Source of the DNA: a virus
DNA: 52,903 nt
Virus record (IMG/VR): IMGVR_UViG_3300044610_000678
Location: 1 to 52,903 of that record
Strand: one strand, 5' to 3'
Shown: one piece after another, positions 16,601 to 52,903 of the stretch
Layout: each line of letters starts with the position of its first letter
How positions within the stretch are numbered: position 1 is the first letter of the stretch
The notes under the pieces: model-generated
The model's input: only the letters and a program-made list of their open reading frames with translations
What the model was told of the DNA's origin: nothing
The model's database searches: none
Position numbers and translations under genes: made by a program

Positions 16601-16735
16601 TCTGCCGGTGTAGAGCTTGTGCTGCTTTTGAAGGCGGTTGTAGAAGGCAGTAATCCATCCTTCGGAACTGCCACCCTGGGGCTTGTTGTCCAAACGGGAA
16701 TAAGAAAAAAACAGATGGTGAGTCTGGTGGGGCAT
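13643..16735 (-). CDS. TIR-NB-ARC-TPR (NLR/STAND-type) protein, cargo block II
   Basis: 1030 aa. Seen: an N-terminal TIR domain (about 5-150) with FFSYSRLDN, IFFDTEAIENGSDW and SPNYMRSKNCRWEWEEY, where Glu93 is at the usual NADase glutamate position. NTPase: FVGRHREL, P-loop GLGGQGKTALA near 281-291, Walker B ALVIFDNVD near 395. A helical region follows, and then C-terminal TPR-type repeats (about 800-950), two of them nearly identical. Family knowledge: TIR-STAND proteins of bacteria sense phage proteins and then degrade NAD. Inference: an anti-phage sensor carried by a phage element, perhaps for superinfection exclusion. It stands alone and opposite to the head genes on both sides, with its own promoter-like -10. 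The start ATG complements 16733-16735. Confidence 0.88.
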   Translation of the reverse strand: MPHQTHHLFFSYSRLDNKPQGGSSEGWITAFYNRLQKQHKLYTGRELRIFFDTEAIENGSDWKARLGQGLRTSNLFLAFLSPNYMRSKNCRWEWEEYLRREHSLARGDDGIRTVFFEIVPGMPGISKLPDYDEGKVQALERELRADQEIARWLDMVSEEFRRRNNYLDQANALNPRATFVLQPWFSKGPQILAELDASERLDQLRADPQSDKEKIVDLAERLKSMDEHIATRLDRCLLADLAPGRRSLGRTYPHFVGRHRELRELHQSLISDKVGVVTAVHGLGGQGKTALAVQYAHAYADFYAAGGRWLVPCEGVSSLADALMRLAGQAELRFDVPQDVQNDPDQTIGFVLLQLERYMEQNAERIMAKLRQDKDRMSSEVNLPELYPRALVIFDNVDHPELVSAEQLKFLPQSEWFELVVTTRLDPEKFGVGKDLRPIAVDSLPIDDAIALIRDFQPNQQFPSPQYEEGVKRLCEELGCFTLAVEIVGAFLAEHPEVDPNDYCARLAKEGISTAEEALALDGVSPHVRHREKQLSIVTDWTLSKLDERARFVLDHAAILEPDSVIMDWLREIASKNYPELRDVEVAREKAVGVLKELLSSDAENSGLFQFHLLDDPIHAPEFIRTMRTQFEGIPEQIRQVLEPLFEDAMLPRKDVSKPDEWAKVWRQLSGLRLLTESAERPVIKEGEPQPRFSVPAVAKIHRLVAAHVQKRMDESSHSQAVKNVAEVFDKKQKDLEDRWRHDPSILWVMRPFGDNAIHLARGYPKELTFAVGCGVLGEAELTTGSIANAQRLTDQFVRCQRFSYEKNKADQEASRLFSAALTDQGSFYLARGKSGDAELALGHFQESLDIRRQIAEANPNSAQALRDLSVSLNKLGDFYLARGKSGDAELALGHFQESLDIRRQIAEANPNSAQALRDLLVSLGRLSDILGSTESDDAKKNSLALQIQALEIALNLHQFNPGNLFLGRTAAITAIRAYEKSRLIGEDNLGGQCLGACYTVLKTLVDNGCQLDEWMEQTYQQLKQAFTQG
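13978..14251 (-). repeat. Near-identical tandem TPR-coding repeat (153-bp period)
   Basis: 13978-14098 and 14131-14251 match at 120 of 121 positions by eye (the mismatch is G/T at 13985/14138), giving two copies of a 51-residue unit starting G-x-FYLARGKSGDAEL. Such identity implies recent duplication or conversion within the sensor domain. Confidence 0.9.
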
Positions 16736-18630: not shown

Positions 18631-19887
18631 ATGAGTACCGCTTTGTTAGAGGGCATGGCCGATCTGAAAAAACGGATGGAAGAGATCGGCAACACGGTCA
18701 AAGGGGGGATCGATGCATTCCGTCTCAACGAAGAGACCAACTCCCTTTCCTACTTCGAATCGGAACTCGAAGAGCCTCAAATGGTTCCCGGTAAACTCAA
18801 GCCCCTTCGCAAAGGGCGGTTCTTCAAGCGACCCAAGAACTACCAGTACGAGTTCAAGTCCTTCTCCGACTTCATGCGGATTGGTTTTAAGGACCCCGTG
18901 CTTTTCAGCGAAAAACATGCCAAGGCCATGAACGTTTGGAAGGCGGCCAATTCGATCAACACCCTCGATAGCGAATCGGCTGGGGCACTGGTCTTACCCG
19001 AGTTTGCACCCGAAATCGCATCGATCCTTTACGACAACGATATCCTTAGCCGAACCAATCAGTTTACCATCAGCGGTAACCGGATGGAGTTCCCTAAGAT
19101 GCAAGAAGCATCGCGGGCCGACGGTGCCCGAACCGGTGGTATCCTGGGCTACTGGATTGAAGAAGGGGATCTGGCAAGTGCGACTCGTCCACAGATCCAA
19201 GGAACCGAACTCAAACTCAAAAAGCTCTGCGTCGTGGTCTATCTGACCCAGGAGCTTATCGACGACAACAGCTACGCTCTGGAGCAATGGGTTCGCCAAG
19301 CCGTCCAGCGAGAATTGACTTTCATGATTGGCGATTCGATCTTCAATGGTGCCGGGGGTGGCAGGCCACTTGGAATCTTCAACTCGCCAGTAACCGTTCA
19401 GGTCGCCGCCGAAGCAGGACAAGCCGCTGGAACCATCATTGCGCAGAACATTTTGAAAATGTATGCCCGTCGTCGATACGGCCAACCGGTCAACTCCTAC
19501 GCCTGGTTCATCAATCAAGACTGCGAGCCGCAGCTCAATACGATGACCCTCGGTAGCGGTGGTCAAAACGGCGTGGTCTATCTTCCTCCAGGTGGTCTGA
19601 GTGTAACCCCGTATGCGACCCTCATGGGCCTTCCGGTGATTCCCACCGAGTTCAATTCCGTACTAGGAGCCGTTGGAGATATCTGCCTTGGGAACCTTGG
19701 CAATTACCTAACGATCAACAAAGGTGGCGTTCAGGAACTGGCTTCTCAGCATGTGGAGTTTCTTCGCGAACAGGTGGCCATCAAGTTTACCTTTCGGGTC
19801 GATGGCAGGCCCTTGTACGACCGCCCAACGGTGCCCAAGAACAGCACCAATGCGCAGTCGGACTTCATGGTTCTTGCGGCACGCTAG
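18631..19887 (+). CDS. HK97-type major capsid protein
   Basis: 418 aa, ATG with GGGAG 9 nt upstream. Seen: an N-terminal helical region (about 1-95) like the scaffold (delta) segment removed in maturation. The HK97 fold follows from about 110: SAGALVLPEFAPEIASILYDNDILSR is split here as 'GALVLPEFAPEI' and 'YDNDILSR', then WIEEGDLA, ELKLKKLCVVVYLTQELIDD, GDSIFNGAGGGRPLGIF (E-loop/P-domain region) and LMGLPVIPTEF. Family knowledge: it forms the icosahedral shell. The cleavage site probably lies near residues 95-110, where SINTLDSESAG begins the mature-type sequence. Its neighbours, the protease before and small head genes after, agree. Confidence 0.9.
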   Translation: MSTALLEGMADLKKRMEEIGNTVKGGIDAFRLNEETNSLSYFESELEEPQMVPGKLKPLRKGRFFKRPKNYQYEFKSFSDFMRIGFKDPVLFSEKHAKAMNVWKAANSINTLDSESAGALVLPEFAPEIASILYDNDILSRTNQFTISGNRMEFPKMQEASRADGARTGGILGYWIEEGDLASATRPQIQGTELKLKKLCVVVYLTQELIDDNSYALEQWVRQAVQRELTFMIGDSIFNGAGGGRPLGIFNSPVTVQVAAEAGQAAGTIIAQNILKMYARRRYGQPVNSYAWFINQDCEPQLNTMTLGSGGQNGVVYLPPGGLSVTPYATLMGLPVIPTEFNSVLGAVGDICLGNLGNYLTINKGGVQELASQHVEFLREQVAIKFTFRVDGRPLYDRPTVPKNSTNAQSDFMVLAAR

Positions 19888-23769: not shown

Positions 23770-24699
23770 ATGCCTGCAAACAACTGCACAGCCAACGTTA
23801 GCCGAAGACATAGGTTTGCGTTCTCAAGCAGTGGGGCAACGGTTCTTTCAAACCGAATCGCACCGCTTGGCTTCTCGATGAAGTCCCTTACCAGTTATGC
23901 CAAAGACGAGGGAATGAACTCGGGTCCATGGGTTCGAAACGAAGGATTCGTGATCGATAAAACCGCTGTGGCTGGAAGTGTTTCTTGGAACGTTCGGCCT
24001 GCAGAGATGCGATGGGCACTCCCTTTGATCCTCGGAGGAGCATTCACCGCAGATACGATCAAAGCTCAGCCCCAATGTCCATTCTTCAGGATCGGCCATC
24101 TCGATGAAGTTGTAAGCAGGCTCTACACCTACATCGATTGCTCGGTTGGAAAGGCGACTTTTTCGTCGAACGATGCCGCCGGTGGGATGCTCCAAGTGGC
24201 ATTGGATATCGAGGCCTGCCAATCAACCCAAGGCCTTGCAAGCACATGGCCTGCAGGCCTTACCCTTTCTTCCCAACAACCTCTCGTCCACTCGACTTCA
24301 ACACTTACGCTCAACGGTATTGCTCGCCGCATGAAGGACGTCCAGGTTGTTATCGACAACCAGCTTATCACCGACGGATACTTCAACAGTCGCTATCGAG
24401 GCGACAACCCCTCGGACGGTCAATTGATCCAACTGATTCACACCAGTCCTTTTGATGATGCGGATGATCTTGCTTTGACGAATCTCACCGGTTCGGTCTC
24501 CGCGACGCTTGTCTACACCGCTGGAACAACCAGCCTCACGTTTCAGTTTCCAGCCTTGCGATACATCGCCCCAGAACCTGAAATCTCAGGCAGAGGATCC
24601 AGAGTAACCAACCAGTACACATGGGAGGCAGCATTGGCCACTGGGGCCGACCCTTCGACCGATTCCCCACTGACAATCACCCTCGATGATGTGATTTAG
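23770..24699 (+). CDS. Tail tube-like protein
   Basis: 309 aa, ATG with AGGAG 8 nt upstream. Predominantly beta: LTLNGIARRMKDVQVVIDNQL and DGYFNSRYRGD in the middle, LTNLTGSVSATLVY near the end. This is the repeating strand style of phage tail tube proteins, and the gene precedes the chaperone and tape-measure genes as tail tube genes do. The assignment rests on gene order plus strand pattern. Many copies would form the non-contractile tube; no sheath gene is visible. Confidence 0.65.
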   Translation: MPANNCTANVSRRHRFAFSSSGATVLSNRIAPLGFSMKSLTSYAKDEGMNSGPWVRNEGFVIDKTAVAGSVSWNVRPAEMRWALPLILGGAFTADTIKAQPQCPFFRIGHLDEVVSRLYTYIDCSVGKATFSSNDAAGGMLQVALDIEACQSTQGLASTWPAGLTLSSQQPLVHSTSTLTLNGIARRMKDVQVVIDNQLITDGYFNSRYRGDNPSDGQLIQLIHTSPFDDADDLALTNLTGSVSATLVYTAGTTSLTFQFPALRYIAPEPEISGRGSRVTNQYTWEAALATGADPSTDSPLTITLDDVI

Positions 24700-28844: not shown

Positions 28845-31643
28845 ATGTCTGACCAGAGTTCTTCTTCCCAAAGCCCATATTCTAACTTGCATGCTCCCCT
28901 TGCAACTCTCATCGTTGGGGTAACCGGAAATACAGACCCGATTGGCTATGACGCAGCGATAGTGAATCCTGCACTAGCCGCTCCTTCGATTCAGGCGATC
29001 TACTTGAAGGTTTGGCAGTTTCTTGATTGGGTATTCGGGAGCGAAACCCAATCTCCAATCGGTTTACCATCGTCTCTCTTACCCAAGCTACTCGGTGACC
29101 AATGCCTTGACGATTTATGCTTGGACAAGAACGCTCCGCGTCTTCAAAACCAATGCGAGTTTATCTCCGGAAAGCTTGAAGCCTTCAACGCGTGCTGGAA
29201 GCCCTTGGCGATTCAGAATACACCCGTGGTGCTTCTCAGTTCGATCGCTCCTGGGATCGATACACTGGTAGCCGAGGTGTTCCTCGACTACCAAAAAGCC
29301 AACCCAAGTCGCTCCGTATTTGTTAGGGCCCCACTCCCTTTTCCGAAAGAAATTCTTGAGCAATGCTCCTCGTATGAAAAGGACGAGGACAAAGTAAGGT
29401 TGCGGTCTTTGCTCGTGCGACTACGAGAGCAGGCCGGATGGGATGAAGACCGCGATCTTTTCTGCGTGAAAATAGATAGCGACTGGGAGCCATTGGCACC
29501 GAGAATCTCAGCGAAAGCAGACCCAATTGCGATCGAAGTGACTTGCCAGGCCGAGCAATCCCTAGCTTTGCAGCTTGGCCCTGAGGCTGATCTAAAGTCT
29601 AAACTCAACTACATGGGGGATCAAAAATCGAGGCGAAATCTCCGCTATAGGGCCGCTGGCGAATACATCGCTTCCCTAAGCCACTTGCTGCTAGCGATCT
29701 ACGACCACAATTTCGACCACCGAGGGAATAAGGAAGACGAGTTTAGAAAACCATTGAATCCGTTCGAACCTGGTACTTGGGCCATCGTGGAGGCCAAACG
29801 AAGAGGGTTGTCTTGGGAGCTTTTAGCAACTTCAAACAATTTTTCCTGGGCAGATAACGGCCCTGTTTTGCGTTTAGGCATTAGCCGCACGAAGCGAGCG
29901 ACATCATCCCCTGCAGGCGGGGAATCTCAAACAATCGCAACCTCAGAGCCAGTTTGGGAGTTCCTTCATCCATACGACCTCGAGCCGCACGATACGCATC
30001 TGTCTAAAGGCCAAAGAAACGCGATTTGGAGTGCTAGTGGCGATTTTGTTCTCCGAAGAATCCTGGAACTCCAAGAGACATACAACAAAGAAGCGAAGTC
30101 GAAATGGAAGTCTGGCGATCCGAGGAATGCTGGTGAATCGGAATTGATCGAAATGATTGTTCCAAGGTCGGAGGGAAAGACTCCCGACCTGCGGCGGACG
30201 AAACTTGTGGAACTTCTCGGAGATAAGTGGGAGAAATTGCAATCGCTCGGGCAGGCAGCAAGTGTTCGGCGATGTTCTGGTGACTTGGCAAACAAGGTTT
30301 ACGAGCCGAAGAGATTCAGAATACTCTGGGCTCTTATTCTTCTTGTTTTCGTTGCGGCGTTCAGTCTTGGAATGTTCGAGCACTGGCATCGACTCGACCC
30401 AGATGGGCATTCCTTGCGATGGCACCCCAGCGATGTGCTCATTGCCCTTGCAAGCTACCTTCCCGCAGGAGACTCTCATTCCAATTCCGTCCAGCCCTGG
30501 ATACGGGCTGGTCTACTGGCAGTTAGCATTTTGACGTTATCCGCCTCTGGAATTTGGTTTATCTTCTACAATCGCGCTCGAATCGAGCAGAAACGCTACG
30601 ACTACCGTGCAATCGCCGAAGCACTACGCGTGCAAATTTACTGGTGTGTCGCTGGGCTAAATCGATCCGTTGCACATGACTATATGCAACGGCAAAAAGA
30701 TGAACTCGATTGGATTCGCTATGTGGTTTCGGAAGTCTCGTTTCCATTAGAACGATGGCCGAAATTCTTCTCGCAATTGACAAACCAGCAGCAGAATACT
30801 CTGCTTCGTTACGTCAAGGAGAAGTGGATTGGAGGACAAATTGAAAACTCGACAAAGAAATGTGCAAGCCTGTCTCACAAGCTCCACGTGACTCACGTTC
30901 TTTGCTGGGGTCTTGCTTGGGCAGGCTTGATTCAACTTCCTTTTATGCTGCTTACCGAGATAAGCGTTGACTTTCAGGAATGGCTAAAAACAAATCACTG
31001 GTTGCTGACGAAAATCGCTTTCTTTTCAAGCTCGATCGGTCTGCTGGTTTTGCTGGCTTTCGGAATTGAACTCGCAATTCATTCCATCAAGAGTCTCAAG
31101 CCTTGGGTTCCAAAATGGCTCTCAACGGCATTGCACTGGGTTGACCATAACTTCGGCCAGCACGAAGAACCTATTGCAGAACCCCACTTAGGCCGAAAGA
31201 TCATCTCCAATCTAGTTCACTATTGGCAACTTGCTGGTGTGGCACTCTTCGTTGGTGGGCTCGCATTTGAGATGTCCTATCATCTACCGGAACTAGGAGA
31301 GGCTTTCCCCGACAGATCCAACTGGTGGATTATCAACACAGGCGCGTGCCTTCTTGCTGGAGCTTTGATGCTCGCCTGGCAGGAAAGGCGCTTTTATTCG
31401 GAGGAATATCGCAACTACTGTTCCATGAGAACACTGTACCGATCTGCGAATCGAAGACTCGACTTGCTCTTAAAGGAACTAGAAAGCGCGTCGCACCAAG
31501 GGAGTAACGATTGGACTCGCCAAAGACTCGTTGCCGAAGCACAAGACATTTTCTATCAAGTTGGATGCGAAGCATTGAACGAAAACGCTGAATGGCTGAT
31601 TCTTCACCGAGCAAGACCGCTTGAGCCGTTTATGGCGGGGTAA
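28845..31643 (+). CDS. Large SLOG-like/six-transmembrane protein, copy 2 (cargo block III)
   Basis: 932 aa, ATG with GAGGTG 5 nt upstream. Seen: LIVGVTGNTDP at residues 22-32, a glycine-rich Rossmann start of the SLOG/DprA type. RYRAAGEYIASLSHLLLAIYD from about 266 is the companion strand of that fold, followed by AIVEAKRRGLSWELL near 310. Membrane segments start near 490, 552, 685, 722, 794 and 827. YDYRAIAEALRVQIYW and DYMQRQKDELDWIRYVV lie between the second and third. The C-terminus RARPLEPFMAG is the same as in the 1820-4246 product. Family knowledge: SLOG domains bind nucleotide-type ligands and are often tied to membrane effectors in predicted defence loci. Inference: a ligand-gated membrane effector. 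What makes its ligand is not visible. Confidence 0.8.
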   Translation: MSDQSSSSQSPYSNLHAPLATLIVGVTGNTDPIGYDAAIVNPALAAPSIQAIYLKVWQFLDWVFGSETQSPIGLPSSLLPKLLGDQCLDDLCLDKNAPRLQNQCEFISGKLEAFNACWKPLAIQNTPVVLLSSIAPGIDTLVAEVFLDYQKANPSRSVFVRAPLPFPKEILEQCSSYEKDEDKVRLRSLLVRLREQAGWDEDRDLFCVKIDSDWEPLAPRISAKADPIAIEVTCQAEQSLALQLGPEADLKSKLNYMGDQKSRRNLRYRAAGEYIASLSHLLLAIYDHNFDHRGNKEDEFRKPLNPFEPGTWAIVEAKRRGLSWELLATSNNFSWADNGPVLRLGISRTKRATSSPAGGESQTIATSEPVWEFLHPYDLEPHDTHLSKGQRNAIWSASGDFVLRRILELQETYNKEAKSKWKSGDPRNAGESELIEMIVPRSEGKTPDLRRTKLVELLGDKWEKLQSLGQAASVRRCSGDLANKVYEPKRFRILWALILLVFVAAFSLGMFEHWHRLDPDGHSLRWHPSDVLIALASYLPAGDSHSNSVQPWIRAGLLAVSILTLSASGIWFIFYNRARIEQKRYDYRAIAEALRVQIYWCVAGLNRSVAHDYMQRQKDELDWIRYVVSEVSFPLERWPKFFSQLTNQQQNTLLRYVKEKWIGGQIENSTKKCASLSHKLHVTHVLCWGLAWAGLIQLPFMLLTEISVDFQEWLKTNHWLLTKIAFFSSSIGLLVLLAFGIELAIHSIKSLKPWVPKWLSTALHWVDHNFGQHEEPIAEPHLGRKIISNLVHYWQLAGVALFVGGLAFEMSYHLPELGEAFPDRSNWWIINTGACLLAGALMLAWQERRFYSEEYRNYCSMRTLYRSANRRLDLLLKELESASHQGSNDWTRQRLVAEAQDIFYQVGCEALNENAEWLILHRARPLEPFMAG

Positions 31644-31852: not shown

Positions 31853-33454
31853 CTACGACCCGATCGGGAATTCAGGATGCTGCAAAATAGCTGCTTGCAA
31901 ATCGATCGCTCGGACAATATCGCCTATCGGTGTAAACTCTTCTGGTGTATGACTTAGACCATCAATCGATTTAATAAAAATCATCGACGTAGGAATGCCA
32001 ATCTTGTGAGCGTACATCGCATCATGGCCGGCACCACTAGGTATCTCCTCTGTCTCAATCTTAAGTTCCTCTGCAACAAGCTTAACAAACGATCGCAGCT
32101 TATTGTCAAGTTTCGGAACTGGATCAATATCACCAATAGGGTTTCCAACCTCACACTCAACCTGAAAGTCGGAAACAATGTCCTTGAATTCCCTATCAAT
32201 TCTTGAATTGACCGAGTACAACGCCTTGGAAGAATTGCTTCTTAAATCCATAAAAAATTCGATTTCGGTTAAAGGCTCATTAATATATGAGTCGTCGAGG
32301 CTCAAGACAATCTCGGAATGTGCGGCAAGCGCGTCTTGTCTTAATCCCATTTCCGTTCCGCCAGAATGCGCGGTTTGTCCCCGAGTTTCGAGCCTACTCC
32401 CGAAAGCTGCATCGACGTCGTCGGTTACACACCCGCGTCGCGAAGCTATTTTCCTGGAGCTCTCTAAATCAACCGAAGTGAGCGGCTTAACGAAGTGGGA
32501 AGCACAGTACCCACAAACAGCATTGATTTTATCGGCACCAGCGAAATATCCATGGACTTCACCAACCGTACCAACAATATCCTCTCCGGCGTAGCAATAA
32601 TGTTTGGAGATAAACTCGACTGCAAGAATCATCGCCGCGACCGCCTGGACACGTCGCTTACCACTAACGACGACACTCCTTCTCTTAGGCGCTCTGATAG
32701 ATGTAACAAGTCCCAATTTATCGGATTTCTCGAGTTTCTTTGCTTGCTCAATATGGGTTTCAAAATACGCGATGTAATCCTTGGCGTTCTTACAATCCTG
32801 AACAATATTCCTAATATCACACCCTCTATTTTTTAAAACATCGGAGAGTGTTGAACCACGATTTTGACCATCGGCAAGCGAGTTGATCATTTGATTCGAA
32901 AAAAAACCGAAAGCTGCTTGGCTTCCGAGGCACGCCATTTTGAACCTTGTCGACTCCTCGGCCCGAAAGATTGCAATCTCAACTGGATGTCTCAAGCCTC
33001 CGTTTGCTTCAGCCCTTCTTACGCTCTCTATTGCAACGATAAAACCTACCACTCCATCGTAGTTGCCACCATCAATTACAGTATCTAGGTGAGTACCAAT
33101 CATTACGGCTGGCTTTTCCTTGACCCCTTTCCTTCCAAACAGGTTTCCAAAGCTATCGACACTAACCTCGAAGCCCATCCCCTTGAGAACCGAAACCGCA
33201 TACTTATGAACCCGATCCTCTTGCTCAGTGAATGCTAACCTTGTCCAACCTTTCAACCTTTGCTCACCTCCTAAGGTACCCGGAATAGATCGCAAAAGAC
33301 CAGAGTAATCCAACAATGAGTCCATCTCATCCAAATGGGCAGAAGCCAAGGTCAACCAACCGGGTGAGTCTCCTGGAAATCCTATCGCACCTATCTCACA
33401 CAGATGCCTTAGGATGTGGCTTCTAAGCACCGAATATTCTTCTGTTGGGGTCAA
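31853..33454 (-). CDS. M20-family amidohydrolase (allantoate / N-carbamoyl amino-acid hydrolase type)
   Basis: 533 aa, TTG start with AAGGAGG 6 nt upstream. Seen: metal-site motifs GTHLDTVIDGGNYDG (about 120-134), FRAEESTRF (about 163-171), YFETHIEQ, SGAGHDAMYAH and GLSHTPEEF, all in family order with the ligand residues intact. Family knowledge: two-metal enzymes that cleave N-carbamoyl or ureido groups, or related amides. About 80 residues precede the usual start of the domain (family 410-420 residues), and this helical N-terminal region is unassigned. It is the last gene of the minus-strand block, 200 bp after the methyltransferase gene, so it may also have its own promoter. Substrate unknown; here it may act on a product of the methyltransferases, which is speculative. 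Confidence 0.85.
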   Translation of the reverse strand: MTPTEEYSVLRSHILRHLCEIGAIGFPGDSPGWLTLASAHLDEMDSLLDYSGLLRSIPGTLGGEQRLKGWTRLAFTEQEDRVHKYAVSVLKGMGFEVSVDSFGNLFGRKGVKEKPAVMIGTHLDTVIDGGNYDGVVGFIVAIESVRRAEANGGLRHPVEIAIFRAEESTRFKMACLGSQAAFGFFSNQMINSLADGQNRGSTLSDVLKNRGCDIRNIVQDCKNAKDYIAYFETHIEQAKKLEKSDKLGLVTSIRAPKRRSVVVSGKRRVQAVAAMILAVEFISKHYCYAGEDIVGTVGEVHGYFAGADKINAVCGYCASHFVKPLTSVDLESSRKIASRRGCVTDDVDAAFGSRLETRGQTAHSGGTEMGLRQDALAAHSEIVLSLDDSYINEPLTEIEFFMDLRSNSSKALYSVNSRIDREFKDIVSDFQVECEVGNPIGDIDPVPKLDNKLRSFVKLVAEELKIETEEIPSGAGHDAMYAHKIGIPTSMIFIKSIDGLSHTPEEFTPIGDIVRAIDLQAAILQHPEFPIGS

Positions 33455-33654
33455 AATATTCCTCCTTCGAGCTTGTTAGTGGACAATCAAATAATGAGAA
33501 CAGGGGCCGTCAAACTTCCAATGATAACCAAAACTCATGGCTTGTCAAGCAAAACCATCCTCTTAGAAACTCGGGAAATGTAACCTTGGACAAAAAACTG
33601 AAAACGACGTTCACAAATCGCAATAATATCTCCTGTAAACCGCATCAGGGTGTA

Positions 33655-34791
33655 TCAATCATCAAGTTGCGAGTCTTGCCATTTCAAAATACCACGAACA
33701 TAATGAAGGTATCCCAATCGGTTGTCGTTCAGCCCGTCAAGCCAAGACGTCCAGGTATCTATTGTCTTTATTTGCACCTCTGGTGGAAGATTAATTATCG
33801 AATCTTCGCTGGTTTCGTCACCGAGCCTAATAATGATGTATTGCACTCGCATTGGGTTAGGGAACGCTTTGCTGTATTTGTATCTCCATATCTTCTCGCC
33901 TGCTTTCGAAATTTGTTTCGTGAACAACGGTGGGATACTTTTTATCACCTTTAGACCTTTTAATGAATTATCGGGGCCGAGAGTGTACGTGAGAAAATAT
34001 ACTGTGCTATAGTCGTTACGACTTAAGAAAGCGGGAATCTTGGTAAGGATTTCGCTTGTAAGTATATCCCCGTGCCTTCCCCCATGCGTGGACTTCCCAG
34101 GGACGTTATCAGTTGGCTTCGGTGCAAAATTAGGATCCGCGATAATCAAGTCAAACGGACCATCTTGTGCCACGGCGTCAAAAAGATGCCCTCGTCTCCA
34201 ACTAATCTTCTTCGGATCACAATTATTCAAAAAACTATTTTGTGTCGCTGTTAAAATTGCAGCTTCAGAAATGTCCGCTCCAATTATATCGAGATCAGGA
34301 CGCAATTTATGAATACCAATAGCGATTGCGCCCGCGCCTGTGCATAAGTCGAGAACTTTCGCACCTTTAGGTAATACTGCTAAAAACTCGGGTATTTCCT
34401 TTAGGATCTTCAAAGATTCGTCAAGAAACGGCCAAACGGTGTCTCGCTCTGCTGGACCCGAAGAAGAATAAACATTGACGGCATCTGCCTTCTTTACCTC
34501 TTTACCAAAAAAATCGACTGGGAAATCCGAAAAAATGAAAATTTCCTGTCCGTTTTCTAATCCTAAAATATTCAATCTTTGCCTGGGCCTCAGGGATGCA
34601 TTACCTGAAATCTCCACAATCCCTAACTGGAGCAAAGCCTCTGTCAGCATTTCATTCAAAGCATCGATAGGCAGCGAAGAATTCCCCCACCGTCCTAGAA
34701 AGTCTCTCGCAACCTTGGTATCCCCCGAAAGAAGAGGATTTGACAGAATGTCGAAAAGATGCCTTAATGCCTCTGCTTTTTTGTTCACCAT
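33655..34791 (-). CDS. Class I SAM methyltransferase, PrmC/RlmG-like, with DPNF motif
   Basis: 378 aa. Seen: an N-terminal helical region (about 1-70, winged-helix-like), then a Rossmann methyltransferase at about 140-300 with motif I VLDLCTGAGA (146-155), GADIS (171-175), and motif IV IIADPNFAPKP (217-227). In PrmC- or RlmG-type enzymes the motif IV is NPPY/NPPF and its Asn binds the target amide or amine. Here it reads DPNF, so the target is likely different. The C-terminal 60 residues (VQIKTIDTWTSWLDGLND) are unassigned. It starts 14 bp after the stop of the 779-aa gene, so the two form an operon. A DNA methylase was considered, but no target-recognition domain is seen. Confidence 0.8.
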   Translation of the reverse strand: MVNKKAEALRHLFDILSNPLLSGDTKVARDFLGRWGNSSLPIDALNEMLTEALLQLGIVEISGNASLRPRQRLNILGLENGQEIFIFSDFPVDFFGKEVKKADAVNVYSSSGPAERDTVWPFLDESLKILKEIPEFLAVLPKGAKVLDLCTGAGAIAIGIHKLRPDLDIIGADISEAAILTATQNSFLNNCDPKKISWRRGHLFDAVAQDGPFDLIIADPNFAPKPTDNVPGKSTHGGRHGDILTSEILTKIPAFLSRNDYSTVYFLTYTLGPDNSLKGLKVIKSIPPLFTKQISKAGEKIWRYKYSKAFPNPMRVQYIIIRLGDETSEDSIINLPPEVQIKTIDTWTSWLDGLNDNRLGYLHYVRGILKWQDSQLDD

Positions 34792-34805
34792 AAATTTGAA
34801 TCCGT

Positions 34806-37145
34806 CTATGTAAGAATAATTCTTTGATTATTGTTTCTTCCAATCAAAACATAACCTCTATTCGGATCTCTCCCGAGAGTAAAGAATTTGGTTTGCTGAT
34901 CATATGAATTAACTTCGAATTGTTCTTCATCGCTTTTGCCGATAGTAACATAATCGTCTCGATTTTCAACGTAGAAACGCTGTTCGTCTTGCAGTAGCTC
35001 CCTCAAATCATGCAACGTGTGGAAGTTCGCAATCATTATCTCAGGGTCCTCGATAACTTTTTCCAAATTCCACATTGATGTTCCATCTGGATCTGCTATC
35101 ACAAGCAATCCGTCAGGCGATAAAAGGTGCGATAGATGGGTCAGCATTTTATGTTGAGGATTTCGAATTGCCCTAATCGCGCTTCCATTAGGATCCAGCC
35201 GCCAGTTGCTCTTTGGTAAAGAGATGAACTCCTTTATTATCTCTTCGCAATTCAAATTGAATAAAATCGGATCGAGAAACGAAAGGTAAACGCGTTCCTC
35301 CAGGAAACCAGCAAGATTGGAAATAACCCTTGCTTTTGCTTCGTTATAAGACAGTCTCGTCAAGCAGTCCAGGACGTTTTTCCTGAAACCATTGCGCCTT
35401 GATTCGTCCAAAGAGGAAAGGACGTGTGATCGAGCACGTCGATCTATTCTTCTTGTTGTGCCGGTTAGGAACTCACGAAGCGGTTCTCCGTTCGGTACAT
35501 GATGAAACGCATAGGAACAAATGAAAACATCAATCTCACAAGCGGATCTCTCATGTCGAGATTCATTAAAGAGGTCGGCTATGCCGGTTTCCATTGGAGA
35601 ATTCTGAATGAAAGTTTGTTTTGACGGAAGCTTGTTCAAAATGTTACGGCGAAAAAGCTCCGAAAACAAATTCTGTCTTTCACCACTCATTCCTTCGCCA
35701 TGCAACATCGAGTCCATGCTTCTAGCCATGTCAGCAACTATCTCGAATCCCAAATATTCAATATTAAAGTCATTACGTGATTTAATTTGCTCATGGATCT
35801 TCTTTAGCAAAAAGAATATTGTATGCCCACCACCAACCCCTCCCTCAACAATTCTTATTCGTCTGCTGTCCTTCACCTTTTTCGTACCGCGTGAAAATAA
35901 TTTTTCAACCAATCGATTTGCAATCCATTTATTTGAAAATTTCAGATGAGTGTTTGTGTCGCTTGGCTCCTTTGCGATTCGTGCTTGCCACTCTAAACCT
36001 GAAAAATCGCTTTGTGCCGCGAATAACATATCGGAAGGCGTCATCTTACAAGCAGACAGATGGTAGAGCTCTTGCAGGTAGGTTATTGCTGCCGGGACGT
36101 TCTTTTGGCGTAACTCAATAAGGTTCTCTTGCCAATTAAAACCAATCTCTTCCGTGCCCTTCAGCCACACCCTTTGTGCTAAATCAATCTTTCCGCCTAT
36201 TATTTTAATCAAAGAGGGACCAAAATCGGACTGACGATTTACATAGTTTATTTGCCTCCCCCAACCTTCAGGATTATTCGATTGTTGTACGAAAAGGTCG
36301 AAATTGTGTCTTGAAAAAATATTATGCTTCTTGCAGACCTCGAACATGGATTGCTTGCTAATCGAGAGTCTAAGTTGGACCCCATCAGTCAATTGGTTTA
36401 GTGCCGTTTTGCTAACTCCGAGTGTTCCTGCTAATTCATCCGGACTCACTTGACTTGACCTAAGCAGTACGTCTATGATAGCGGCAAAGGCGTGCGGACT
36501 CCACAATTGCTCATCTCTCGTTGTCAAGTAATTTCTTGATTTTAAGTCGTTATCCTTCCACCGAGCTACAATCGTTTGCGATTCGGAACATATCTTGTCG
36601 TGATTTCTTAGGTCTGCATAGTGAGGATAACCGTTATGTTCGCGTAGCATTTCTATGTGAGTTTGAAGATCAAATGTCTCTTTCTCAGATCTTTTCCCTT
36701 CTGCCGTGTTTTCGGTTGTACTATCTTTCGTTTCGCCATTTCTTTGTATTTCTTGTGGTTCAAACTGCGCGATTACTCCGAGTTTCTTATTTAAAAGCAG
36801 TGCGATCCAAGCTTCTAGTTGCGTGTAAGTTAATCGACAAAACATTTCGCCGTTTTTGAATAACTCTTTATCCAATAGATCTTGTCTTACTATAGATCCT
36901 TTTTTTTCTTCGAAGAAATTGTGCCATTCTTTGATTGCTGTATTTATGCGACTTCCTTGATCCACACCAATTACTTGCAAAACAGCATCTACGTCTTCGA
37001 TTTCCTGCCATATATTTATTGGTGCGATGCCAACTGTCGGTAGATATTTCTGTACTCGAACTTCGAAGTTTGAAGCTCTTAGCACTCCTTCGACTTTATT
37101 CCGAAGCTCCTCGATATTTGTTGGCGTTGAAACAAATATTCGCAT
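34806..37145 (-). CDS. DUF4062-like / HTH / SAM-methyltransferase fusion
   Basis: 779 aa, ATG with AGGA 7 nt upstream. Seen: an N-terminal alpha/beta domain (about 1-125) beginning MRIFVSTPTNIEELR, with IWQEIEDVDAVLQVIGVDQGS and RLTYTQLEAWIALLLNKKLGVI, split here for brevity. This is the layout of DUF4062 domains found at the front of conflict-system proteins. An HTH is at about 230-275 (ELAGTLGVSKTALNQLTDG). A methyltransferase domain is at about 390-720, with motif I IRIVEGGVGGGHTIFF, then FHHVPNGE and LSPDGLLVIADPDGTS. A C-terminal tail carries several Tyr/Asn-rich strands. The combination is not one I recognise. As first gene of the AT-rich operon it may sense a signal and modify a small molecule, peptide or protein; the function is unproven. 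Confidence 0.7.
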   Translation of the reverse strand: MRIFVSTPTNIEELRNKVEGVLRASNFEVRVQKYLPTVGIAPINIWQEIEDVDAVLQVIGVDQGSRINTAIKEWHNFFEEKKGSIVRQDLLDKELFKNGEMFCRLTYTQLEAWIALLLNKKLGVIAQFEPQEIQRNGETKDSTTENTAEGKRSEKETFDLQTHIEMLREHNGYPHYADLRNHDKICSESQTIVARWKDNDLKSRNYLTTRDEQLWSPHAFAAIIDVLLRSSQVSPDELAGTLGVSKTALNQLTDGVQLRLSISKQSMFEVCKKHNIFSRHNFDLFVQQSNNPEGWGRQINYVNRQSDFGPSLIKIIGGKIDLAQRVWLKGTEEIGFNWQENLIELRQKNVPAAITYLQELYHLSACKMTPSDMLFAAQSDFSGLEWQARIAKEPSDTNTHLKFSNKWIANRLVEKLFSRGTKKVKDSRRIRIVEGGVGGGHTIFFLLKKIHEQIKSRNDFNIEYLGFEIVADMARSMDSMLHGEGMSGERQNLFSELFRRNILNKLPSKQTFIQNSPMETGIADLFNESRHERSACEIDVFICSYAFHHVPNGEPLREFLTGTTRRIDRRARSHVLSSLDESRRNGFRKNVLDCLTRLSYNEAKARVISNLAGFLEERVYLSFLDPILFNLNCEEIIKEFISLPKSNWRLDPNGSAIRAIRNPQHKMLTHLSHLLSPDGLLVIADPDGTSMWNLEKVIEDPEIMIANFHTLHDLRELLQDEQRFYVENRDDYVTIGKSDEEQFEVNSYDQQTKFFTLGRDPNRGYVLIGRNNNQRIILT

Positions 37146-37399: not shown

Positions 37400-38470
37400 C
37401 ATGCTGGCGTAGCAATTTTTTTCTACCTGAGCGATTCCATGGGAAGGGACGCCAATTCCTGTATCGTTCTACATCGCTGGTTTCGGGTAATTGTGTCATG
37501 GAGATGCCACCATATTCGCTCGATCGGAATGCTTTCTGGAGAATGGGCTTACGAAAAACGCATCTGCATACGACGACTAGATTTATCAAGGTATCTCCTG
37601 AGATCCTTCGACTTGTGAAACGCGGCGTTGTCGTAGATTTCATGGATCTTAGAGTAGGCTCGCAGTCGCCGACGCAGGTCGTCCAAATGAGCCAAAAACA
37701 TTTCTGATTTTCTGCGTGGTTGTGATTCGCTCACCAATGGAGTTTCCTGTCGCCCATATCAAGGAACAGACAGTTAGAGCTTTTGATTGTTACCTGGAGT
37801 TTTGACTTCCTGCTGAAGACCACGGGCCATCCATTGACATCCAATTTTTGGGTTGAGATTGATGACGACCTCGTCCTATAAAATCGCAATCTCGTTGGTA
37901 GTTAAATGCCCTAAAATCGGCTGTATTGGCCACATTTTCTTGCCTTATATTGCATCCGATGGACCTGCCACTTGTCTAACTCCTCTCTATACGAATCCGA
38001 GGCGACGCATCCACCGACTCACCGTTTCAGCAGTACATGAAGTTTGATCCCGTTCCTTTAGAATTTCAGAAAGAATTTCACATGACCATCGCGCTCGAAA
38101 GTAAGCGAAGTCTCGCGGAGTATACTCAATACCCCTATCGCAAACCGTATCGGTCAGATCCGGATCCAAGCATTGGGGGCAGTGATTCCAATTGCAGATT
38201 CCAGACCGGTTTCTAGGAAGCATCTTTTTACATGCGCAATGCAATCGGAGCCATACAACATGGCATCCAGGATTTGCCGATAGGATGAACCGCGATCTAA
38301 ATGTATCAGGATATGTGAACGACGGGATATCCGAGCACTGGCTCCAAAACGCAAATATTCCAGTGTGTTCCTGCTTTGGGACTCGGTCAAGCAAATAGTT
38401 CCATCCATAGCTTGGCTCCTTATGGGATTGTAGTGATAAGTAGATCCTAAGAACAAAGCGACTTTCATTG
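37400..38470 (-). pseudogene. Decayed IS630-family transposase
   Basis: Reading the minus strand from about 38440 down: an N-terminal HTH (RRSHILIHLDRGSSYRQILD, then HVKRCFLETGLESA). After a frameshift, ETVSRWMRRLGFV (about 37990-38030). Then DEVVINLNPKIGCQWM and EVKTPGNNQK (about 37790-37880). Then HEIYDNAAFHKSKDLRRYL. Then, past an in-frame TAA near 37550, SPESIPIERIWWHLHD and TRNQRCRTIQEL (37450-37545). These are the DDE residues and C-terminal IER-WWHLH signature of IS630. At least two frameshifts and one nonsense codon make it inactive. Exact ends and terminal repeats are not resolved. Confidence 0.85.
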
Positions 38471-49700: not shown

Positions 49701-50716
49701 ACGTCAACGGAAAAATCAATCCGTCGGTACTTCCAACGCTTCAGACTTCGAGTCTGCCGACGATCCCGATAAGCAAAGGAGGCACAGGCCAAACAGAGCG
49801 TGCAGCGGCTTTGAATGCTCTGCTTCCTTCGCAAACCGGAAATGCCGCAAGGCTACTGATGTCTGACGGCTCGAACTGCTCATGGGGACCTGGTGCTCGT
49901 CATGTTGATGTCCAAGGTTTCTCGGCAAACGGCACATGGAATAAACCACCCTATGCCATGCGAACGATCTGCCTGCTTATTTCCGGGGGTGGCGGAGGGG
50001 GTGGTGGGCAGCAGAATCCAGCGGGTAGCATTGCCATCGGTGGTAACGGTGGCAACGCTGGAGGCTGCGTAATTTTGAATCTTGATCCAAGTCAGCTCGC
50101 ATCAAGCGAGACAGTCACCGTCGGTGCTGGTGGAGCCGGCGGAACCTCTCGAACTACCAATGGCAACGGTTCCCATGGAACCGATGGTGGAACATCCTCG
50201 TTTGCTGGTTTCTCGGTCGTCGGAGGGGTTGGCGGACGGGGGGGAGGTTTTACCGGTTCAAATGGCATCGCAAACGGCGAGAACCCCGGTCAGGCTCCCA
50301 ACTTTGGTGATGCGTTTGGGGGAATCGTTGCCTCTCAAGTTGGAGGTATCGCAGGATCGACTCCAACACCCATGGGTTACGAATCCAAACTCCGCTCGAC
50401 CGCCGGGGGGGCTGGAGGAGGGTTCGATGCATCGAACACCACCTATAACGCAGGAGCGGGTGGAGCCATCAATTTTCTTGGCAAATTCATTCTTGGTGCT
50501 CAGCCCAATGGCCTACGGGACGGAACCGTTGGCCATTATTTTGGTACAGGCGGAGCAGGAGCCCAAGCCAATTCAGGATTCAATGGTGGCTTAGGAGCGC
50601 TTTATGGTGGAGGTGGCGGGGGAGGGGCAGGCCGGCGCGATACGAGCACGGCCTCATCGGGTGGTAAAGGTGGAGATGGCTACGTCCTTATCGTTACCGA
50701 GTGCCAGGTTCAATGA
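46790..50716 (+). CDS. Tail fibre with internal repeats and glycine-rich tip
   Basis: 1308 aa, ATG at 46790 with AAGGAG 8 nt upstream (an in-frame TTG at 46739 is weaker). Seen: repeated modules of about 150-205 residues with SSVNG, an EG-x-N-x-YFT-x-RV-x-A block, HTHAVAT, LRDRSTHTGTQ and a VLD-x-x-GKI-x-x-x-LP block. Near 1005, ISKGGTGQTERAAALNALLP is a motif typical of phage fibres. From about 1060 to the end it is glycine-rich with poly-Gly runs (GGGGGGGG), as in adhesins whose tips fold as polyglycine-II bundles. Family knowledge: such tips bind host receptors and vary between strains. Its stop codon overlaps the glycosyltransferase start. Confidence 0.85.
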   Translation: MAEDIADKLRNPDGTLSGTNTGDASASEIVRGNDTRLSNARVPLTHSHSVATTSASGFLAASDKTKLNSIEPNATRNAPDADLRDRSSHTGLQSISTIDGLQSQLDAKLASSLSMVSLASLSTSGVPQRQSDGTWSMITEGVALASHTHALATNSTHGFMPSTAVTKLGTISVGATANASDMQLRDRSTHTGVQSLSSIDGIGTAASRNAGTQAGNIPFLDTTGKLPIGVIPPISTGRYWLGAASNQTEMLAFRGGPGDWCSRTDLSRDFVIIQNTGENLSDWRGLSTSGSSVTSVNGLSGAVVLSTTQVLEGTNQYFTLDRVRAVDLSTMSGSVPQSKVTDLVATLASKQTASANLTAIAGLSGSGVLERLANGNFILSVYAAVNHTHSNATQSVAGFLSASDKVKIDGLGTASVLNSGTTAGCVPVLDSNGKLVSAVLPPQSVSSVYTVASQAAMLALSAAVRGDYAIRTDVNQTFILTATPSSTLANWTQLTSGSSVTSVNGLSGAVSLSTTNISEGSNQYFTTARVQAVSLASLTGDLPQSRITGLVSDLANHTHAVATSSQAGFLSTGDKAKLDGISTGATANATNAQLRDRSTHTGTQPSTTITGLGSSATRDVGSAPGNIPLLDSQGKIDVGILPSLALTDTFVVSSAAAMLSLSAQKGDIAVRSDLNQTFILTAEPATTLANWQQLLSPSSSVSSVNGATGTVVLSSTNIPEGTNLYFTTSRVQAVALSSLSGDIPQSRVTGLLSDLANHTHAVATTSVAGFLSASDKTKLNGVATGATANATDADLRSRSTHTGTQSYTTIVGLGSAATKDTGTLSGNVPVLDATGKIPTALLPAVSVSSVNGATGIVVLTSSSISEGSNLYYTDARVQANSLTSLQGNLPQSRVTNLASDLNSKQAASSNLTALSSFASGSAGFVQRTVGNSFALVDGQLITSQDRTNLNSLSSAAYRAVGTGLGNIPELDVNGKINPSVLPTLQTSSLPTIPISKGGTGQTERAAALNALLPSQTGNAARLLMSDGSNCSWGPGARHVDVQGFSANGTWNKPPYAMRTICLLISGGGGGGGGQQNPAGSIAIGGNGGNAGGCVILNLDPSQLASSETVTVGAGGAGGTSRTTNGNGSHGTDGGTSSFAGFSVVGGVGGRGGGFTGSNGIANGENPGQAPNFGDAFGGIVASQVGGIAGSTPTPMGYESKLRSTAGGAGGGFDASNTTYNAGAGGAINFLGKFILGAQPNGLRDGTVGHYFGTGGAGAQANSGFNGGLGALYGGGGGGGAGRRDTSTASSGGKGGDGYVLIVTECQVQ
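47660..49420 (+). repeat. Four fibre-coding repeat modules
   Basis: SSV(T)SVNG or SSVNGATG blocks begin near 47661, 48281, 48886 and 49327, with spacings of about 620, 605 and 440 bp. Protein sequence is well conserved while the DNA has diverged, so the array is old and under selection. Confidence 0.8.
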
Positions 50717-51891
50717 TCTCCGAGGAACTCCAGCAGCATATTCTTTGTGTGGCTAAGTCTTTAGGTCTAGAAGCGGACTCCCAGAGAATTCGCCTTTGGA
50801 ATACCGATCCTGATAACCCCGAGCGCCGAAGCATCGAAAGAGTTGCTGGAAAGATTTTTCCTAACCAACCCCGAGTTCAGCGCTGGACGGATTGGCACCT
50901 CGAAGGTTTTGATCCAACACACAAGTCTCAAGGCCCCAGCCAAGCAGTAGGAATCGTCCATACGGTATTCCATTCCTGCGGTGGAACCGAAACATGGGCC
51001 AAGCATTTTGTGAGGGTCTTGGGCCAGAGAGTCCCGATAGCAGGCTTGGCTTACCTTGCAGGTGATCGATCGCGGGGTTCAATCGAAGGAGCCGACGGTC
51101 CGGTTCCAATTGCCTGTGGAATTCGGGCGGCTGAAGGACTCTCGTCGGTTTGCGACACGCTGATTCTCTGGGGGCTCTCTGGGCAGATTGTCGAGCAACT
51201 TAGGAAGTCGGCTCGCAGGGACTGCCGCTTAATTCATGTTCACCATGGGGATCCAAATAGCCATTGGTCTACAGGAATCGTGCAAGAGGCCAAAGCACCA
51301 GAGGACTTGCTAGTTTGTGTTCACCCTCAAGTCGCAAGATTAATCGGTGGGCTATGGATACCCAATGCCATTGATCCATGCCGAATAACTACTCAGCGGA
51401 ACGTAAAAGCTCCTACGGTGCTGTTTATGCATCGCTTCTCGGAGGAAAAAAAACCTCTTCTTGCCGTAGATGCCTGCCGACTATTACCAGCCGAATGGAA
51501 AATGGTTTTCGCTGGCAGAGGAGAGTTTTTTGATCAAGCGATCCAGCGGGCCCAAGGCGACATGCGGTTTACTTTTGTTGCCGATGGAGATCCACTTGCG
51601 TTGTTTCCCCAAGCAAGCGTGTTTCTCTCTTTGTCGACGACCGAAGGCTTTGGATACAGTATCGCTGAAGCTGCCGCTTCTGGCTTGCGAGTGGTTTCAC
51701 GTCCGGTCGGAATCGCTATTGATCCCCAGGTGGCGATGCAAATCCCATGGGGCGTTTCGACCCCTCAAGAGATTTCAATGCTGATTCAAAAAGCAGGTCA
51801 AGAGACATCCAAAGCAGCAGCATCAAGAGAATTCGTATTGCAAGAATTCAGCGAGCAAATTTTCGCAAAAAAATGGCTAGGTGTTCTATGA
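50713..51891 (+). CDS. GT4-type glycosyltransferase coupled to the tail fibre
   Basis: 392 aa, ATG at 50713 overlapping the fibre stop (ATGA). Seen: an N-terminal Rossmann half with HTVFHSCGGTETWAKHF near 80-95 and IHVHHGDPN. The C-terminal half has LFMHRFSEEKKPLLAVDA, MVFAGRGEFF, and the family E-x7-E motif TTEGFGYSIAEAAASG near 310-325. It is a retaining GT-B enzyme that uses a nucleotide-sugar donor. The first 70 residues are extra. Inference: because it is translationally coupled to a Ser/Thr/Gly-rich fibre, it may glycosylate the fibre, or alter host surface glycans to exclude other phages. Confidence 0.82.
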   Translation: MISEELQQHILCVAKSLGLEADSQRIRLWNTDPDNPERRSIERVAGKIFPNQPRVQRWTDWHLEGFDPTHKSQGPSQAVGIVHTVFHSCGGTETWAKHFVRVLGQRVPIAGLAYLAGDRSRGSIEGADGPVPIACGIRAAEGLSSVCDTLILWGLSGQIVEQLRKSARRDCRLIHVHHGDPNSHWSTGIVQEAKAPEDLLVCVHPQVARLIGGLWIPNAIDPCRITTQRNVKAPTVLFMHRFSEEKKPLLAVDACRLLPAEWKMVFAGRGEFFDQAIQRAQGDMRFTFVADGDPLALFPQASVFLSLSTTEGFGYSIAEAAASGLRVVSRPVGIAIDPQVAMQIPWGVSTPQEISMLIQKAGQETSKAAASREFVLQEFSEQIFAKKWLGVL

Positions 51892-52036: not shown

Positions 52037-52903
52037 TCAAGCCACATCAGGTTTTGGTGGAAGTCTGCCTTGGCGGACTTCACGATGATCGATATAGCTT
52101 GCTCTTACGGTTCGAACTCCACCGACATGTCCTAGAGATTCAGCAGCAGCGACTTCGCCCTCTTTCTTGTAGATCTCTGTGGCATGGGACTTTCTTAGCG
52201 TTCCGATCCCTTGCCCGCGCACGCGTCGAAAACCGAAGCGTTTTGCAGCATCAAAGAGCATCAGTTCAAGTCGACGGCAACCACCTTTGCCGATCGGAAA
52301 GACCAACTCTCGTTCGGGGGATCGGATTGCTTTGAGAGCTTGTTTGCTTTCAGCGCTCAAAAGCGCGGTGTGAGTTCGCCTTGTTTTGTGCTGCGTGATT
52401 GAAACAGTTCCGTATTCGAAATCGATATCGACCCAACGCATAAGCCGAAGATCGATCGGACGCAGTCCTGTGTCGTAACCAACCAAAATCCATGCCCTCA
52501 TCAGATCCGATTGATGGATTCCACATTTGAGTTTACCCAAAAGAACTTGTGTGCCCTTCAGAAGGCAAGACACCTGATCTTGAGTCCAGGACAAAACAGG
52601 TTTATGAATGAGTTTCTGACGCCGAAGTCGCTTCGGATTGTAACCCGGGATTCCTTCGGTTTCCGACGCATAGTTCCATACGCGAGTCATCGCAACGCGA
52701 TAGTTTCGAATGGTTGTCGGATTGAGTTTCTGCTGGGACGCAAGAAGAAAACCATTGAGGTTATCCATGGTAAGGTCAGACAACTCTGCCTTCTTCCCGA
52801 GCCATGCGCTAAAGCGACTCACAACCATTTGATACTGCTTGATCGTGCATGGTTGAAGATCATGCTCAAGAACAATTCTATCAATAACATTCGACAGCAA
52901 CAT
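52037..52903 (-). CDS. Tyrosine recombinase (integrase)
   Basis: 288 aa, with its start codon at the window edge, so an upstream extension cannot be excluded. Seen: a SAM-like N-terminal core-binding domain (about 1-85) and a catalytic domain with GLRPIDLRLMRW (first Arg), ITQHKTRR (Lys), IGTLRKSHATEIY (second Arg), ESLGHVGG (His) and VRASYIDHRE (Tyr nucleophile). The His of the usual HxxR box is Gly here (GTLR). It is compact (family 300-400) and converges on the glycosyltransferase gene. Likely mediates integration or excision of the element, or of a neighbouring island. No attachment site could be identified. Confidence 0.85.
   Translation of the reverse strand: MLLSNVIDRIVLEHDLQPCTIKQYQMVVSRFSAWLGKKAELSDLTMDNLNGFLLASQQKLNPTTIRNYRVAMTRVWNYASETEGIPGYNPKRLRRQKLIHKPVLSWTQDQVSCLLKGTQVLLGKLKCGIHQSDLMRAWILVGYDTGLRPIDLRLMRWVDIDFEYGTVSITQHKTRRTHTALLSAESKQALKAIRSPERELVFPIGKGGCRRLELMLFDAAKRFGFRRVRGQGIGTLRKSHATEIYKKEGEVAAAESLGHVGGVRTVRASYIDHREVRQGRLPPKPDVA

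What the first reader, a model, noticed from the sequence alone, without database searches (positions are those of the whole stretch)
31853..37145. Unfamiliar three-gene operon: DUF4062-like/HTH/methyltransferase, second methyltransferase, M20 amidohydrolase
Three minus-strand genes are clustered, the first two 14 bp apart. The first fuses a conflict-type N-terminal domain, an HTH and a SAM-methyltransferase; the second has an altered methyltransferase motif; the third is an intact M20 hydrolase. The block is visibly AT-richer than the phage genes around it, so it came from elsewhere. I know of no described system with this set. It may make and remove a methylated small molecule or peptide, or act as a new defence module.
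Basis: partly seen in the sequence, partly recalled or inferred. Interest (0 to 1): 0.82.

Follow-up and report, generated by a model that had tools for sequence, protein, structure and literature searches.

The report
Orphan methyltransferase cargo in temperate phage
A temperate phage carries a small, foreign, AT-rich block with two adjacent methyltransferase genes and a separate, internally rearranged amide-hydrolase gene; one methyltransferase has no relative in any collection searched, so this is real accessory cargo of unusual make-up, but it is not shown to be a recurring system.

Summary
The three minus-strand ORFs exist and cannot be chance: A 34806-37145 (779 aa), B 33655-34791 (378 aa), C 31853-33454 (533 aa). 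The window is an IMG/VR virus record of a temperate tailed phage. The block is foreign by GC and codon usage and sits beside a decayed IS630 transposase. A and B are 14 bp apart. C is set off by 200 bp that hold the region's best promoter-like site, and has its own strong Shine-Dalgarno, so a single three-gene operon is doubtful. C is not an intact M20 enzyme: metal and substrate residues are kept, but the dimerisation (lid) domain is scrambled. B is a PrmC/MTS-fold methyltransferase with NPPY changed to DPNF. A has class I methyltransferase motifs, a weak DUF4062-like N-terminus and a possible HTH. A had no credible homologue in 50,697 phages, 72,556 plasmids, pattern scans of IMG/VR and GTDB, or about 1,580 whole genomes, so the recurrence test that would make this a 'system' found nothing. 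Best reading: accessory cargo in which A and B modify a common unknown target, with C a separate, possibly degenerating passenger. A new conflict system is possible but unproven.

The parts
34806..37145 (-). Gene A, 779 aa: DUF4062-like N-terminus, possible HTH, class I SAM methyltransferase domain; no homologue found
   Evidence: ORF; shuffles; orphan status
36756..37145 (-). A residues 1-130, DUF4062-like (TIR-like Rossmann) domain, weak
   Evidence: PF13271 best Pfam match, residues 2-70 to profile 1-71/82, 13.7 bits, E 0.076, below cut-off 24.7
36399..36479 (-). A residues 223-249, possible helix-turn-helix
   Evidence: HTH_11 13.5 bits, E 0.07; MarR_2 and TFIIE_alpha at the same place
34971..35948 (-). 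A methyltransferase domain (about residues 400-725) with an insert of about 100 residues between motif IV and the last motif
   Evidence: Motifs EGGVGGG 434-440 and YAFHHV 545-550, LLSPDGLLVIADPDG; Methyltransf_23 E 5.6e-4 on the fragment; two collinear weak stretches to CurJ 5thy
33655..34791 (-). Gene B, 378 aa: PrmC/MTS-type methyltransferase with its own N- and C-terminal regions
   Evidence: PF05175 34.8 bits (cut-off 23), TIGR03534 64 bits (cut-off 199.1); Sphingobium BDX81376 28% over residues 29-248
34126..34137 (-). B altered catalytic motif IV: DPNF in place of NPPY (residues 219-222)
   Evidence: Sequence; the Sphingobium relative keeps NPPY
31853..33454 (-). Gene C, 533 aa, TTG start: M20 hydantoinase/carbamoylase-family amidohydrolase with a rearranged dimerisation domain
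   Evidence: TIGR01879 224.3 bits, cut-off 204; PDB relatives 3n5f, 1z2l, 8c46; rearrangement
32501..32689 (-). C residues 256-318: first partial dimerisation domain, lacks the HAGxTPM motif, carries the interface strand GTVGEVHGYF
   Evidence: Profile order: 40-303 with the HAG stretch missing
32291..32419 (-). C residues 346-388: second partial copy, carries RGQTAHSGGTEM plus helix, lacks the interface strand
   Evidence: Profile positions 229-271 repeated after 303
33521..33548 (-). Promoter-like site in the B-C gap
   Evidence: TTGACA-16-TATCAT, 11/12, best of the region; total count near shuffle expectation
37400..38468 (-). Decayed IS630-family transposase directly upstream of A
   Evidence: tblastn E 7e-31 over residues 80-319 at 38178-37453 with several stops; HTH_33; IS630 hits

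Best explanation
The block is accessory cargo (a moron island) of a temperate tailed phage, acquired from an unrelated AT-richer source next to an IS630 element that has since decayed (shown by composition, codon usage and the transposase remnant). A and B are co-transcribed methyltransferases, probably translationally linked, that act on a shared host target. A would be the specificity subunit: a DUF4062-like/HTH front end that binds a partner or nucleic acid, coupled to a small-molecule-type class I methyltransferase domain. B would be a second methyltransferase whose PrmC-type site has drifted (DPNF) towards a different acceptor (all inferred). C is a separately expressed N-carbamoyl/amide hydrolase whose dimerisation domain has been scrambled by partial duplication and deletion, so it is a diverging or degenerating passenger and not the third step of a pathway (the rearrangement is shown, the functional loss is inferred). 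In the lysogen, A and B would change a host molecule in the prophage's favour.
For: Virus record with portal and capsid, tail tube and integrase. Foreign composition and codon usage of A, B and C. Decayed IS630 upstream. A-B gap of 14 bp against B-C gap of 200 bp with promoter-like site and strong SD. MTase motifs in A and B. Out-of-order lid in C. Other accessory conflict-type genes lie in the same phage: TIR/NB-ARC/TPR and two paralogous DUF4231-like membrane proteins; a close relative, L002, lacks the TIR gene at its site.
Against: No homologue of A means no test by conservation. Substrates are unknown. The single-sequence models were useless (pLDDT 34 and 32). No relative covering both flanks of the block was found, so an empty site was not shown for this block. 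C keeps all catalytic residues and an open 533-codon frame, which argues against plain decay. The promoter-like site is only a consensus match.
Confidence: 0.4

Rival explanations
1. A-B is a new two-gene phage-borne conflict or superinfection-exclusion system: A's DUF4062-like/HTH part senses an invader and the two methyltransferase domains modify a nucleic acid, protein or signal molecule; C is unrelated or removes the product.
For: DUF4062 is the top, in-register Pfam match of A's N-terminus. The phage also carries a TIR/NB-ARC/TPR gene and two DUF4231-like membrane proteins. Reverse-strand, foreign block in a temperate phage.
Against: No recurrence anywhere, no defence-family match above chance over more than the motif, DUF4062 below cut-off, no NTPase or nuclease effector.
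Confidence: 0.2
2. Fragment of a small-molecule (peptide or modified amino acid) pathway carried by the phage: A is a polyketide/peptide-type C- or O-methyltransferase, B a second methyltransferase, C an N-carbamoyl or amide hydrolase that trims the product.
For: A resembles the CurJ methyltransferase domain in two collinear stretches (E 0.014). C is in the hydantoinase/carbamoylase family.
Against: No assembling enzyme (synthetase, ligase, radical SAM) nearby; C separately expressed and rearranged; CurJ match is weak.
Confidence: 0.2
3. Decaying horizontally acquired debris: A and B still open by chance of recent arrival, C already damaged, all beside a dead IS.
For: IS630 transposase with several stops; C's lid duplicated and deleted; no conserved relatives.
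Against: Three intact long frames, coding-like codon-position GC, strong SD for C, catalytic residues kept; C's changes all stay in frame.
Confidence: 0.15
4. Metagenome misassembly joined or scrambled part of the block, C's lid region in particular.
For: The lid order is unlike all nine relatives aligned; single contig, no second copy.
Against: Frame open throughout and no sharp composition break at the junctions; A and B unaffected.
Confidence: 0.05

Closest known systems
Hydantoinase/carbamoylase family amidases (M20; TIGR01879; structures 3n5f, 1z2l, 8c46)
   Same: C scores above the family cut-off and keeps the metal and substrate motifs (GTHLDT, NYDG, EES, THIEQ, SGAGHDA, DGLSHTPE, and the Arg of FFMDLRS, which by my alignment matches Arg291 of 8c46, named as ligand-binding in PMC10952681)
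   Different: Dimerisation domain duplicated in part and out of order; about 110 residues longer; below every named equivalog cut-off
HemK/PrmC-type MTS methyltransferases, including the uncharacterised Sphingobium protein BDX81376
   Same: B has the MTS/PrmC core (34.8 and 64 bits) and a comparable N-terminal extension
   Different: NPPY replaced by DPNF; far below the PrmC cut-off; own C-terminal 120 residues
PKS C-methyltransferase domain of CurJ (5thy)
   Same: A: motif I region and last motif in collinear order; His in motif IV
   Different: E 0.014 only; about 100-residue insert; DUF4062-like/HTH front end in place of PKS modules
DUF4062 (PF13271) conflict-associated domain
   Same: A residues 2-70 align over almost the whole profile from its first position
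   Different: 13.7 bits against a cut-off of 24.7
MADS defence system (mad2 methyltransferase)
   Same: B matches the mad2 model over the MTase core (E 1.7e-12)
   Different: Only residues 133-225; no other MADS gene in the block

Membership tests
Hydantoinase/carbamoylase M20 amidase (C) | Family score above curated cut-off | tested here: met
   TIGR01879 224.3 bits, cut-off 204
Hydantoinase/carbamoylase M20 amidase (C) | Metal- and substrate-binding motifs | tested here: met
   Alignments with nine relatives and PDB chains; reference residues from PMC10952681
Hydantoinase/carbamoylase M20 amidase (C) | One contiguous dimerisation domain with the interface strand in place | tested here: not met
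   Profile hits in the order 40-303 (HAG stretch missing), 229-271, 300-421
PrmC/HemK protein methyltransferase (B) | PrmC equivalog score | tested here: not met
   TIGR03534 64 bits, cut-off 199.1
PrmC/HemK protein methyltransferase (B) | NPPY motif | tested here: not met
   DPNF at residues 219-222
Class I MTS-fold methyltransferase (B) | Pfam MTS above gathering score | tested here: met
   PF05175 34.8 bits, cut-off 23
Class I methyltransferase (A) | Pfam methyltransferase family above gathering score | tested here: not met
   Methyltransf_23 20.1 bits on the fragment, cut-off 27; motifs present by eye
DUF4062 (A N-terminus) | PF13271 gathering score | tested here: not met
   13.7 bits, cut-off 24.7, E 0.076
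PKS-type C-methyltransferase (A) | Sequence similarity to CurJ cMT | tested here: inconclusive
   E 0.014, two collinear weak stretches
MADS defence system | mad1-mad8 gene set | tested here: not met
   Only a core-domain match of B to mad2; A, C and the neighbours tested gave no MADS match
New defence or accessory system | Genes recur together in unrelated genomes | tested here: inconclusive
   No homologue of A in phages, plasmids, pattern scans of IMG/VR and GTDB, or about 1,580 genomes; most phyla only sampled
New defence or accessory system | Protection from phage or toxicity on expression | not testable with these tools
   Needs an experiment

The most novel reading that the evidence does not exclude
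A-B is the first seen member of a new conflict or host-modification system of phages, in which a DUF4062-like/HTH sensor fused to a small-molecule-type methyltransferase works with a second, motif-shifted methyltransferase; C is an M20 enzyme with a functional re-ordered lid that acts on the product.
Probability: 0.1. Interest if true: 0.75.

Novelty: new variant of a known kind. Interest (0 to 1): 0.36.

Why it matters
If A and B work together they would be a phage-borne pair of methyltransferases with a conflict-type front end, which to my knowledge is not described, and a handle on what lysogens change in their hosts. The rearranged M20 lid, if functional, would be a natural test of how much re-ordering a dimerisation domain tolerates. 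As it stands the case rests on one contig.

Tried and rejected
Recurrence of A: of the eight viral scans, four were on A or its parts; plus genome contigs, plasmids and phages by tblastn, and about 1,580 genomes of the phyla to which MCP-bearing loci labelled Gemmataceae, Rhodoblastus, Acidobacteriaceae, Verrucomicrobiota, Anaerolineales, Actinomycetes and Desulfatitalea belong (searches used A joined to the ends of B): nothing. The two weak hits (L085, L086) were a frame antisense to long ORFs that read like PPDK and glycyl-tRNA synthetase, and a glycosyltransferase (these names are mine from the translations). Structure prediction of A and B without alignments failed, so no fold search was run. 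The PRTase_III-A match of A was rejected: it covers only motif I. The mad2 match of B was rejected as membership. B in 199 Planctomycetota genomes gave only methyltransferase-core hits. DNA-level duplication or inversion inside C was not detectable, so the rearrangement is old or came from a divergent copy. An empty site for the block was not found: L002 ends upstream, and the 1221-aa tail gene downstream had no IMG/VR relative. The Sphingobium neighbourhood gave no clue to B's function. Literature searches for DUF4062 with methyltransferase and defence, and for M20 with methyltransferase in prophages, found no paper. Host: nearest MCP in genomes is a Gemmataceae MAG at 47%, too far to name a host.

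Full report
The window is an IMG/VR virus record of 52,903 bases from a tailed phage. Portal (5016-7280) and major capsid (18631-19887) match PHROGs, tail tube (23770-24699) and integrase (52037-52903, minus) match Pfam, so the phage is temperate. The nearest IMG/VR relative by capsid is L002 at 71%; the nearest in genomes is a Gemmataceae MAG at 47%, too far to name the host.

The three ORFs are as described and beyond chance: the longest stop-free run in 300 shuffles of the block was 208 codons. They are foreign to the phage: GC 41.2, 43.5 and 46.2% against 51-55% in structural genes, and RSCU correlation with the phage core of -0.15, 0.07 and 0.12 against 0.61-0.87. Directly upstream of A lies an IS630-family transposase broken by several stops (tblastn E 7e-31 at 38178-37453). 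This gives a plausible route of arrival (inference).

Operon structure: A to B is 14 bp, B without a clear SD, so translational coupling is likely (inference). B to C is 200 bp; C has a strong SD (AAGGAGG, TTG start), and the gap holds the region's best sigma-70-like match, TTGACA-16-TATCAT (the total number of sites is close to the shuffle mean). I therefore treat A-B as a unit and C as a likely separate transcription unit.

C belongs to the hydantoinase/carbamoylase M20 family (TIGR01879 224.3 bits, cut-off 204) and keeps the metal and substrate residues seen in relatives. A family profile, however, matches it in the order 40-303 with the HAGxTPM stretch missing, then 229-271, then 300-421. 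The dimerisation domain is thus partly duplicated: the first copy has lost the HAGxTPM motif and the second has lost the next strand. In the solved relative 8c46 the dimer interface is formed by strands 269-278 and helices 230-260 (PMC10952681), which by alignment includes the strand displaced in C. None of nine relatives aligned has this. Whether C still dimerises or works is unknown; the frame is open and the codon-position pattern is not abruptly disturbed.

B has an MTS/PrmC core but scores 64 bits against the PrmC cut-off of 199.1 and has DPNF in place of NPPY. Its best relative with an aligned N-terminal region is a Sphingobium plasmid protein of unknown function, 28% identical, which keeps NPPY. 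Loss of the second proline and of Tyr suggests a changed acceptor or reduced activity (inference from known NPPY chemistry).

A has no family match above any cut-off. Motifs EGGVGGG, YAFHHV and LLSPDGLLVIADPDG mark a class I methyltransferase domain. The only PDB lead is the CurJ C-methyltransferase, in two collinear weak stretches (E 0.014). The first 140 residues have DUF4062 as best Pfam match, in register but below cut-off. No homologue was found in phages or plasmids by tblastn, in IMG/VR or GTDB by peptide-pattern scans, or in about 1,580 genomes; the two weak hits were spurious. Pattern scans with a single sequence are insensitive and phyla were only sampled, so 'rare' is shown and 'unique' is not.

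Context: the phage carries other accessory conflict-type genes. 13643-16735 (minus) is TIR/NB-ARC/TPR, and L002 lacks it between the homologous flanking genes. The 932-aa gene beside the block and the 808-aa gene at 1820-4246 are 36% identical paralogues; the former has a sub-threshold DUF4231 match, and I read them as SLOG-SLATT-like membrane proteins from memory. This makes accessory cargo the natural reading of A-B-C, and defence or exclusion one possible role.

Verdict: real, foreign phage cargo with one orphan protein and one structurally odd enzyme. Not a demonstrated three-gene system, and C is not intact.

Noticed in passing
13643-16735 (minus): TIR_2/NB-ARC/TPR protein (1030 aa) between head genes; the closest relative L002 has about 500 bp there instead, so it is an insertion relative to L002. 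It holds a 125-nt direct repeat (98%) in its C-terminal-coding part.
   Followed up: partly
1820-4246 and 28845-31643: Two large paralogous proteins (808 and 932 aa, 36% identical) in one phage, DUF4231-like membrane region and SLOG-like front; both end in the same PFMAG tail; the 932-aa protein had no match in plasmids.
   Followed up: partly
37400-38468 (minus): Decayed IS630 transposase inside a phage genome, which suggests an old or resident prophage.
   Followed up: yes
32291-32689 (minus): Partial duplication and out-of-order dimerisation domain within gene C.
   Followed up: yes
50701-51891 (plus): Glycosyltransferase group 1 gene just before the integrase, a further accessory candidate.
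   Followed up: no
1-1524 (plus): ClpX/HslU-like AAA ATPase at the start of the contig, strong match to phrog_4339 of unknown function.
   Followed up: no
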